Shown here: piece after piece, positions 48,517-51,477 of the stretch
Layout: the number at the start of each line of letters is the position of its first letter
Position numbering within the stretch: position 1 is the first letter of the stretch
NCBI GenBank assembly: GCA_002787695.1
Contig: PCXL01000008.1
Span: forward strand, 1 to 56,492
Source: Candidatus Zambryskibacteria bacterium CG10_big_fil_rev_8_21_14_0_10_42_12
GTDB taxonomy: Bacteria > Patescibacteriota > Minisyncoccia > Phycocordibacterales > 1-14-0-10-42-12
Length of the DNA: 56,492 nucleotides
Direction: 5' to 3'
Translations under genes and position numbers: made by a program
Notes under the pieces: generated by a model
Told to the model about the DNA's origin: nothing
Seen by the model: only the letters and a program-made list of their open reading frames with translations
Database searches by the model: none

Positions 48517-48556
48517 CGCTTAATGTAATAAGTACGGTGTGAGCGAGTAATCGCAA

Positions 48557-48600
48557 ACACATAACAAAAACCGCCCTTTGGGGCGGTTTTTGTTATGTGT
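48557..48600 (+). terminator. Intrinsic terminator of the S-layer gene
   Basis: ACACATAACAAAAACCGCC pairs with GGCGGTTTTTGTTATGTGT, a long near-perfect hairpin. Confidence 0.9.
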
Positions 48601-48648
48601 TTATATACTGTATATCTGCATCTCTATATCTCTTGTATCCTTATCCTT

Positions 48649-48695
48649 TTACCAAGGTTCAACCTTTGTATATTGCAAAGGTTGAACCTTGGTAA
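48649..48695. repeat. Double REP palindrome
   Basis: TTACCAAGGTTCAACCTTTG, a 7-nt spacer, and the inverse CAAAGGTTGAACCTTGGTAA, two REP units in opposite orientation. It lies 186 nt from the transposase stop. 48601-48648 shows nothing else. Confidence 0.85.
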
Positions 48696-48880
48696 AATAA
48701 TAGATAGTAATGTTTAGTAAGGTTTGTTTTTAAAATAGAACAGGGAGCAGGGGAGGTTTCGGCACAATTGTGTTATTGAACTTTGATAATAAGGTATTTG
48801 TCTAGATAATGGCTCTGTGTTGAGAGTGTAGAGACTCGCTTCATGTTCTTCATAAAGTTAGAAGAGGGTGTGGATAACTT

Positions 48881-49570
48881 TTAAGCAATTACCAAGGTTG
48901 AACCTTTGTAATCAGGTATATCAAAATTTATCCATTCATCTATAAATGCTATAAATTCACCTGCAGTTTCAAAGTATTGAGGAGCAGATTCTTTTTGAAG
49001 GATTTTTCCCTGGTGTCTTTGTTTATCAGTAAAATCAAGAAAACTTGAATATGTATATGATCGTAAAAATGCTTTCCCCTCTTCCCTGTTCCATGTTCGT
49101 TTCTTTTGCCAATCTGATTCTAATAATTTGATTGGATTGAGGTGTATATAGGCAAATAGATATTTGAGATATGTATCTGTATGAGCGTGTTTAGCTTTAT
49201 ATCGACCTTGAAATAAAGCTCCTGATCGGTCATATTTTTTATTGAAATACATGGAATATGCAGTCACTAGTTTTTGCATGAATTTCCCCAGATTCATTTG
49301 ATCTGTGGTTTTAATGAGTATATGAAAATGATTTGGCATCAAACAATACGACACAATGTCTACAAGTGTTGAGGATCTATCTTGAGAGCAGATTGCTTCT
49401 AGAGTCTTCCCTTGCTCCCTAATATTTACTCGTTGTGTGTTATTTGCAATATACAGTAAAGATAAAAATCGCTCATAATCTTGTGTATCTAAGAACACAT
49501 CTCGTTTTTCCGTACCTCTATTATAGACATGGTAGAACTCATTTGGTGCCAACGCTACAGTATGCTCCAT
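48881..49570 (-). CDS. REP-associated Y1 (IS200-like) transposase
   Basis: 229 residues. NEFYHVYNRGTEKRDVF is the Y1_Tnp start; YCLMPNHFHILIKT gives the HUH motif, and the catalytic Tyr is expected around SMYFNKKYDRSGALFQGRYKAK. Such proteins mobilise or process single-stranded REP hairpins. Its last codons (YKGSTLVIA) are read through a REP unit, and further REP units lie on both sides of the gene (48649, 49580, 49658). This is a complete REP-RAYT unit. Confidence 0.9.
   Translation of the reverse strand: MEHTVALAPNEFYHVYNRGTEKRDVFLDTQDYERFLSLLYIANNTQRVNIREQGKTLEAICSQDRSSTLVDIVSYCLMPNHFHILIKTTDQMNLGKFMQKLVTAYSMYFNKKYDRSGALFQGRYKAKHAHTDTYLKYLFAYIHLNPIKLLESDWQKKRTWNREEGKAFLRSYTYSSFLDFTDKQRHQGKILQKESAPQYFETAGEFIAFIDEWINFDIPDYKGSTLVIA
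48889..48911. repeat. REP unit in the 3' end of the transposase gene
   Basis: TTACCAAGGTTGAACCTTTGTAA, overlapping codons of the transposase C-terminus. Confidence 0.85.
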
Positions 49571-49579
49571 GAGTTTATT

Positions 49580-49602
49580 TTACAAAGGTTGAACCTTTGT
49601 AA
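49580..49602. repeat. REP unit upstream of the transposase
   Basis: TTACAAAGGTTGAACCTTTGTAA, 10 nt upstream of the transposase ATG (minus strand). Confidence 0.85.
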
Positions 49603-49625
49603 AAGGTATGATTGTGGATAACTCG

Positions 49626-49654
49626 TTGTATTCTGTTTCTTTGAAAGATATAAT
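49626..49654 (+). promoter_or_regulatory. Promoter of the 48-aa membrane protein
   Basis: TTGTAT, 17-nt spacer, TATAAT. The REP unit at 49658 would form a hairpin at the 5' end of this transcript. Confidence 0.6.
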
Positions 49655-49657
49655 TTT

Positions 49658-49680
49658 TTACAAAGGTTCAACCTTTGTAA
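49658..49680. repeat. REP unit in the leader of the 48-aa gene
   Basis: TTACAAAGGTTCAACCTTTGTAA, ending 5 nt before ATG 49686. Confidence 0.85.
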
Positions 49681-49685
49681 AGGGA

Positions 49686-49832
49686 ATGAAAGATAACCCA
49701 GTGAACAATTTCTTCAAATTCTTCTTTGGATTTTGGGGTCTAATCGTACTCAGTTTGATTGTGATCGGTATCATCACTGTGTATGAATATTCACTTGATT
49801 CTGGTGAATCGGTTGTTGAAGCGTCGTCTTAG
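49686..49832 (+). CDS. Small membrane protein, 48 aa
   Basis: Starts at ATG 49686; the longer frame upstream runs through the REP unit. It has one membrane helix (FWGLIVLSLIVIGIITVYEY) after a Phe-rich start (VNNFFKFFFG), and a short acidic tail. A sigma-70-like promoter and a REP hairpin precede it. No family recognised. Confidence 0.6.
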   Translation: MKDNPVNNFFKFFFGFWGLIVLSLIVIGIITVYEYSLDSGESVVEASS

Positions 49833-50890: not shown

Positions 50891-50985
50891 TAAAAATCAA
50901 AATGAAAAATGACAGTGTAAAGTTAAAAATTTTCTAATTATACATTTTGAATTGTAATTTTGATTTTTGAGATTTAAATTTTAAA
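50891..50985. repeat. AT-rich imperfect inverted repeat between rplJ and rplL
   Basis: Left part AAAAATCAAAATGAAAAATG and right part ATTTTGATTTTTGAGATTT can pair imperfectly. The left arm shares TCAAAATGAAAAAT with a copy inside 23S rRNA (55062-55152), pointing to one dispersed repeat family. Confidence 0.6.
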
Positions 50986-50994
50986 TTAATTATT

Positions 50995-51477
50995 ATGGCA
51001 GACGAAGTAAAAAATGAGGGAGAAGCAGTTGTGGCTCCCGCAGAAGAAACAAAAGCAGAAACAGTAGCTGAAGCTCTTGTAGAAGAAGAGGGGGAAGAAG
51101 TAGAAGTTCCTGCAAAATTTAAAAAGATCGTAGAAGAAATTGAAGGTATGTCAGTACTCGATCTTCACGAACTAGTAAAAGTATTTGAGAAGAAATTCGG
51201 CGTATCAGCTGCAGCAGTGGCGGTTGCTGGTCCTGCGGCTGGTGCCGGAGAAGCAGCAGAGGAGAAAGATAGCTTTAATGTAGAACTTGCAGATGCAGGC
51301 GCACAGAAAATCGCAGTTATTAAAGCTGTGAAAGAAGTGCTGGGTCTTGGTCTCAAAGAGGCAAAAGATCTTGTAGATGCAGCACCTTCTATTCTTAAAG
51401 AAGGAATGAAGAAGGATGAGGCAGAAGCTCTCAAGAAATCAATCGAAGAAGCCGGAGGTAAAGTTAATTTGAAATAA
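50995..51477 (+). CDS. rplL: 50S ribosomal protein L7/L12
   Basis: 160 residues, about 35 longer than usual because of an N-terminal Glu-rich extension ([18 protein letters not shown]...). The N-terminal dimerisation helix ([19 protein letters not shown]), Ala/Gly hinge and C-terminal domain ([24 protein letters not shown]) are all present. It recruits translational GTPases. Its last codons form half of a perfect 42-nt palindrome. Confidence 0.95.

What the first reader, a model, noticed from the sequence alone, without database searches (positions are those of the whole stretch)
48640..49690. Complete REP/RAYT unit with REP inside coding and leader sequences
A Y1 transposase is surrounded by five REP units (two in a back-to-back pair). 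One supplies the transposase C-terminus and another forms the 5' leader of a small membrane protein, 5 nt before its ATG. REP capture as a gene leader is a possible regulatory use.
Basis: seen in the sequence. Interest (0 to 1): 0.6.

Follow-up and report, generated by a model that had tools for sequence, protein, structure and literature searches.

The report
Patescibacterial RAYT-type transposase with cognate palindromes
A single-copy "hairpin-reading" transposase gene in a tiny-genome Patescibacteria bacterium sits among copies of one 21-letter palindrome that is also scattered between other genes; its relatives show an apparently undescribed twist, because about half of them also carry their own palindrome inside the transposase reading frame, and that inner copy has changed in step with the flanking copies.

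Summary
Observation confirmed. A Y1/HUH transposase gene (49570-48881, minus strand) and five copies of TACAAAGGTTSAACCTTTGTA lie where stated. Its predicted fold best matches E. coli RAYT bound to a REP hairpin (PDB 4er8). The palindromes lack the GTAG tag and the protein is below NCBIfam's RAYT cut-off, so this is a RAYT-like variant, not a proven RAYT.

The C-terminal copy is the regular downstream copy: relatives have one palindrome ~39 nt before the start codon and one at the stop codon, overlapping the ORF end in 46/77. The "leader" copy lies 4 nt before a conserved small membrane protein; none of 8 homologues has it. It is probably a lineage-specific insertion; regulation is untested.

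The larger result is in relatives: 73/148 genes contain, in frame, a copy (>=14/15) of the palindrome flanking that same gene, against 16/1176 for swapped flanks; 64/71 lie in one loop before the HUH motif, in all three codon phases. E. coli rayT lacks this. The window's gene has no loop copy. New variant of a known kind; the inner copy's function is inferred.

The parts
48881..49570 (-). Y1/HUH transposase gene, RAYT-like, 229 aa; HUH = H81-F82-H83; invariant Y141 as the likely catalytic tyrosine (assignment inferred)
   Evidence: PF01797 E 1e-12; invariant columns; AlphaFold model pLDDT 90.7; Foldseek best hit 4er8
49578..49604 (.). Upstream palindrome copy (U), 7 nt before the transposase ATG, 27-nt perfect palindrome
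   Evidence: relatives: U centre median 39 nt before ATG
48890..48910 (.). Downstream palindrome copy (D), encodes residues 221-227 YKGSTLV just before the stop codon
   Evidence: D arm overlaps the ORF end in 46 of 77 relatives; tail low confidence in the model
48650..48694 (.). Back-to-back (REPIN-like) pair of palindromes, inverted relative to each other, 3 nt apart
   Evidence: a second such pair at C9:60924/60955 of the same genome
49657..49681 (.). Palindrome copy in the leader of the divergent small-protein gene, 4 nt before its ATG; with U it makes an inverted pair 51 nt apart
49686..49832 (+). Conserved small membrane protein, 48 aa (MKDNPVNNFFKFFFGFWGLIVL...); start ATG 49686, so the leader palindrome is untranslated
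   Evidence: weak but family-like matches in 29 of 98 relatives, same start and FFKF..GF motif; upstream of rplJ also in L151 and L154
49400..49414 (-). Site homologous to the in-ORF palindrome of relatives; here CAAGGGAAGACTCTA (QGKTL), not palindromic
   Evidence: alignment column table; own-flank match only 10/15

Best explanation
This is a RAYT-like (REPtron-type) unit of a Patescibacteria genome. The Y1/HUH protein is expected to recognise the single-stranded hairpin formed by its cognate 21-nt palindrome, cut beside it with the conserved tyrosine and copy or move palindromes singly or as inverted pairs, which explains the dispersed intergenic copies; the gene itself stays put as a single copy bounded by an upstream copy (before ATG) and a downstream copy (at the stop codon). 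SHOWN here: matching palindromes on both sides of each gene that differ between genes; dispersal of the same palindrome in the genome; a different palindrome for the second Y1 gene of the same genome; RAYT-like fold. INFERRED: hairpin binding, cleavage, mobilisation. The copy in the C-terminus is the downstream copy read into the frame; the copy before the small membrane protein is a dispersed copy that landed in the shared divergent leader. In about half of the relatives a further copy is embedded in the transposase frame in one loop and has stayed identical to the flanking copies while these changed (shown); I think it is kept matched by the transposase's own action on it (conversion between copies) and serves as a cis site on its own gene or mRNA, i.e. 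self-limitation (inferred, the weakest step).
For: 13 genomic copies, 0 in control, 8 outside the window, none inside a confidently identified gene. Foldseek top hit 4er8, RAYT with REP hairpin, E 2.9e-5; NCBIfam REP_Tyr_transpos hit by 14/14 members. 77 of 104 loci with room on both sides have matching U and D palindromes, 8% (96/1234) when flanks are swapped. Second Y1 gene of the genome has its own palindrome, 8 genomic copies, 3 of them around that gene. In-ORF copy: 73/148 against 16/1176 swapped, 63 perfect against 2, 64/71 in one loop, codon phases 38/3/23, 56 distinct sequences; first sample 22/96 perfect against 0/759; second sample 45/54 at >=13/15. E. coli rayT negative.
Against: No GTAG guide at the palindromes; below the NCBIfam RAYT cut-off; copy number low for REPs; U and D direct in 39 and inverted in 38 loci, whereas RAYT genes are described as always flanked by inverted REPs (PMC2817692). 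27 of 104 loci had no matched pair. No activity data. Neither Y1 gene of this genome has a loop copy.
Confidence: 0.8

Rival explanations
1. A classic IS200/IS605-type insertion sequence whose ends are the hairpins: the whole gene transposes and the palindromes are left- and right-end hairpins.
For: Same HUH/Y1 core and hairpins at both ends; Foldseek also hits IS608 and ISDra2 TnpA; direct orientation of the two end hairpins in half of the loci.
Against: Single copy in this genome, paralogues only ~45% identical; IS200 NCBIfam model 18 bits against 46 for RAYT; eight palindromes dispersed without the gene.
Confidence: 0.1
2. The palindrome is a transcription-factor operator or a terminator family, and its proximity to the transposase is incidental.
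For: Several copies lie in leaders or just after genes; a perfect 21-nt palindrome also suits a dimeric repressor.
Against: Flanking palindromes match each other per locus and differ between transposase loci; two Y1 genes of one genome have two different palindromes; all 7 relatives with the AAGGTTSAACCTT core have the transposase family; no terminator call at the palindromes.
Confidence: 0.05
3. The in-ORF copies of relatives are merely recent, neutral, repeated insertions of the palindrome into a tolerant loop (like RPE in Rickettsia genes), without function.
For: The loop is variable in length; genes with a copy are slightly longer there (64 against 61 residues); some copies lie elsewhere in the frame (7 of 71); the trait needs at least 16 changes on the quick tree.
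Against: In the phase-0 group the copy sits at the same alignment column in most loci, with no length change against copy-less members, while its sequence differs and tracks the flanks; dissimilar proteins (40-50% identity) with perfect copies imply maintenance rather than recent arrival everywhere.
Confidence: 0.3
4. The in-frame copy is conserved for the peptide it encodes (x-G-x-[ST]-x), e.g. as a DNA-binding loop.
For: Copy-less members, including the window protein (QGKTL), keep a similar G-x-[TS] peptide.
Against: Codon phase differs between groups (38 phase 0, 23 phase 2, 3 phase 1; peptides RGSTS, SEVGLP, YEAKPR), yet the DNA palindrome matches the flanks in all.
Confidence: 0.08

Closest known systems
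RAYT / TnpA-REP and REPtrons (E. coli rayT, Stenotrophomonas, Pseudomonas; PMC2817692, PMC8266576)
   Same: HUH/Y1 single-copy gene, palindromes on both sides, cognate palindrome family dispersed mostly between genes, palindrome and protein change together, pairs of palindromes; fold closest to 4er8.
   Different: No GTAG tag; nearly perfect palindrome with one central base; about 10 copies rather than hundreds; flank orientation not regularly inverted; in relatives an in-frame inner copy, absent from E. coli rayT.
TIRYT / TIRtrons (PMC3733652) and Y1 subclass 2.6, 'atypical secondary structures' (PMC6006769)
   Same: RAYT-related gene flanked by self-complementary repeats without GTAG; some form small repeat families; flanking repeats can overlap the gene's 5' or 3' end ('5'ov', '3'ov').
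   Different: No GGGGWSAS consensus; membership of subclass 2.6 not tested; no inner copy described in the passages read.
IS200/IS605 elements (IS608, ISDra2)
   Same: HUH/Y1 core, hairpins at the ends.
   Different: No multiple full copies, no TnpB, weaker profile match.
Rickettsia palindromic elements and other intragenic REPs (PMC3733652)
   Same: Palindromic repeats carried in frame inside protein-coding genes.
   Different: Those lie in unrelated host genes; here the host gene is the palindrome's own transposase, at one recurrent loop, with sequence tracking the flanks.

Membership tests
RAYT (REP-associated tyrosine transposase) | Y1/HUH transposase with HUH motif and single catalytic tyrosine | tested here: met
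   PF01797 over cut-off; H81-F82-H83 and Y141 invariant in 42 sequences
RAYT (REP-associated tyrosine transposase) | Curated family model over its cut-off | tested here: not met
   NF047646 46 bits, cut-off 80; all 14 members hit it, IS200 model hit by 1
RAYT (REP-associated tyrosine transposase) | RAYT-like fold | tested here: met
   4er8 best of the PDB, E 2.9e-5, TM (target) 0.64
RAYT (REP-associated tyrosine transposase) | Gene flanked by its REPs | tested here: met
   U and D copies in the window; 77/104 relatives
RAYT (REP-associated tyrosine transposase) | Flanking REPs in inverted orientation | tested here: not met
   39 direct, 38 inverted across relatives; direct in the window by the central base
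REP | Dispersed, mainly extragenic palindrome | tested here: met
   13 copies, the 8 outside the window overlap no confident gene; gene boundaries by eye from ORF lists
REP | High copy number (usually >100 per genome) | tested here: not met
   13 copies in 675 kb
REP | GTAG (or GTGG) tetranucleotide 5' of the palindrome | tested here: not met
   no GTAG in 13 aligned copies, none adjacent in the window copies
RAYT (REP-associated tyrosine transposase) | Cuts and mobilises its REP | not testable with these tools
   needs biochemistry
IS200/IS605 | Multiple near-identical full copies in or between genomes | tested here: not met
   one copy in this genome, the other Y1 gene is 45% identical

The most novel reading that the evidence does not exclude
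In a large Patescibacteria (Paceibacteria) family of RAYT-like genes, the transposase carries its own recognition palindrome inside its reading frame as a functional cis element: the protein acts on its own gene or mRNA through it, and the copy is kept identical to the flanking copies as specificity changes.
Probability: 0.45. Interest if true: 0.75.

Novelty: new variant of a known kind. Interest (0 to 1): 0.58.

Why it matters
RAYT/REP systems are known chiefly from Proteobacteria; here a related system is widespread in ultra-reduced Patescibacteria (141 of 238 class genomes), with one palindrome family per gene. The 56 different palindromes paired with sequenced transposases are a natural data set for decoding how these enzymes read hairpins. 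An in-frame copy of the recognition site inside the enzyme's own gene, maintained through changes of sequence and in different codon phases, would make self-regulation or copy-to-copy conversion by a domesticated transposase directly testable.

Tried and rejected
Peptide-level explanation of the inner copy: rejected for the family, three codon phases. Recent IS: rejected as first choice, single copy. Terminator reading of the palindromes: no terminator-like call; the terminator-like perfect hairpin 48555-48602 is a separate structure after the 46612-48516 gene. Rfam: 14 sub-threshold hits, all below gathering scores, mostly answering to the hairpins themselves; ignored. PDB search by sequence profile: nothing at E<=0.01. 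Reading of the small protein from the upstream ATG 49608 (which would translate the palindrome): rejected because homologues start where ATG 49686 starts. My first flank-pair detection missed palindromes overlapping stop codons and was redone. The careful tree did not finish; only the quick tree was used. Literature: full-text searches and targeted finds turned up no description of REP inside rayt genes; the library lacks most subscription papers, so this is not proof of novelty.

Full report
WHERE. The window is one whole contig of a 675-kb, 26-contig genome, about 98% complete. Named records of the nearest relatives are Nomura-, Zambryski-, Taylor-, Kaiser-, Yonath-, Vogel- and Lloydbacteria and other Parcubacteria/Paceibacteria, so the host is taken to be a Patescibacteria of that class (inference; the genome itself is unnamed).

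OBSERVATION. The sequence holds a Y1 transposase gene, 49570 to 48881 on the minus strand, matching PF01797, and five copies of one palindrome. Thirteen exact cores exist in the genome, none for the control pattern; allowing two mismatches adds none. Aligned, all 13 copies reduce to TACAAAGGTTGAACCTTTGTA with unrelated sequence outside. The eight copies outside the window lie between genes: just after a thioredoxin-reductase-like gene, an HtpX-like gene and a small membrane-anchored gene, and before genes that look like aspS and cysS (gene names are my reading of the translations). Some weak short ORFs overlap copies there, none of which I take for a gene. Two of the eight form an inverted pair, as do the two at 48650-48694.

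WHAT THE PROTEIN IS. NCBIfam's REP-associated transposase model is the best family hit, 46 bits but under its cut-off of 80; the IS200 model gives 18 bits. All 14 members of a first alignment hit the REP model. The structure model is confident (pLDDT 90.7) except for the last residues, those written by the palindrome and the two after it. Its best match among solved structures is 4er8, the E. coli enzyme bound to a REP hairpin, followed by IS608 and ISDra2 enzymes and Thg1 proteins. HUH and tyrosine are invariant in 42 relatives.

ANATOMY IN RELATIVES. Homologues occur in 38 of 60 nearer genomes and 141 of 238 class genomes. Each gene tends to have its own palindrome, repeated before the start and at the stop. 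With the corrected search, 77 of 104 loci with room on both sides have a matching pair; swapping flanks between loci gives 96 of 1234. The upstream centre lies a median 39 nt before ATG and the downstream copy overlaps the end of the frame in 46 of 77. In the window these are 49578-49604 (7 nt before ATG) and 48890-48910 (residues 221-227). So the palindrome in the C-terminus is the normal downstream element. Overlaps of flanking repeats with such genes were drawn before ('3'ov' in PMC3733652). The second Y1 gene of this genome (C9, about 45% identical) has a different palindrome, AAGGGTGCCCCTT, in 8 genomic copies, three of them around that gene. All seven relatives with the AAGGTTSAACCTT core have a member of the transposase family, though 31 genomes have the family without that core, as expected if each gene has its own palindrome.

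THE INNER COPY. Scanning each frame for a palindromic 15-mer that matches its own flanks gave, for 148 loci, 73 with at least 14/15 against 16 of 1176 with swapped flanks, and 63 perfect against 2. Of 71 placeable cases, 64 lie 8-40 (mostly 21-28) residues before the HUH motif, between the first helix and the strand that carries it. A site-based test on 96 loci of the first sample gave 22 perfect own-flank matches against 0 of 759 swapped, and palindromic sequence in 28% against 0.8% of other codon positions. A second sample of 54 loci, fetched afterwards, gave 45 with at least 13/15. Fifty-six different sequences occur. Codon phase is 0 in 38, 2 in 23 and 1 in 3, so the DNA, not the peptide, is what is kept. 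In the phase-0 group the copy sits at one alignment column, without length difference from members that lack it, which speaks for an old element whose sequence followed the flanks rather than for a fresh insertion each time. Presence is scattered on the tree (at least 16 changes, shuffled mean 23.6, quick tree only). E. coli rayT, a control, has flanking GTAG-tagged REPs but no inner copy. In the window gene the site reads CAAGGGAAGACTCTA and is not palindromic; the second Y1 gene has no inner copy either. The window is therefore a member of the family without its most striking feature.

THE LEADER. The ORF at 49686-49832 belongs to a small membrane protein family whose members start at the same place; two of nine also precede rplJ. 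None of eight homologues has a palindrome of 7-bp arms like this one in the 120 nt before the start, save one unrelated GC-rich hairpin in L151. The palindrome ends 4 nt before ATG and would form a 12-bp hairpin in the mRNA, which could hinder initiation, but the whole 91-nt stretch folds only modestly better than shuffles (z -1.5). A regulatory role is possible and untested.

HOW IT PROBABLY WORKS. By analogy with TnpA-REP (PMC8266576) the enzyme should read the hairpin in single strands, cut nearby and spread palindromes. Shown here: matched flanks, dispersal, one palindrome per gene, fold. Inferred: cutting, movement, and any role of the inner copy. I favour upkeep of the inner copy by the enzyme's own activity with a self-limiting effect; a neutral tolerant-loop insertion is the main rival and I give it about 0.3.

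VERDICT. Real, and a new variant of a known kind (RAYT-like units without GTAG, in Patescibacteria, with an in-frame self palindrome in relatives). For strict RAYT/REP membership several defining features fail (GTAG, copy number, curated cut-off, regular inverted flanks), so I claim 'works like' and not 'is'.

Noticed in passing
L038-L246 (e.g. L038:1650-1666, L043, L069, L218): In-frame copy of the locus's own flanking palindrome inside the transposase gene in about half of the relatives; became the main result.
   Followed up: yes
window 49686-49832: Conserved small membrane protein family (NK-FFKF-GF) in Paceibacteria, sometimes directly before rplJ-rplL; no Pfam family matched over its cut-off.
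   Followed up: partly
window 48555-48602: Perfect 22-bp inverted repeat with a 4-nt loop after the 46612-48516 gene, terminator-like and usable in both directions, separate from the palindrome family.
   Followed up: no
G000:C9:46146-46921: Second Y1 transposase of the genome with its own palindrome family (AAGGGTGCCCCTT, 8 copies).
   Followed up: partly
window 50973-51084: Sub-threshold Rfam match to the S15 leader (25.3 bits, gathering 39.5) next to the rplL start; probably chance.
   Followed up: no
class-wide search, e.g. G293, G189, G214: Some genomes under 1 Mb carry 8-12 divergent members of this transposase family, a large share for such reduced genomes.
   Followed up: no
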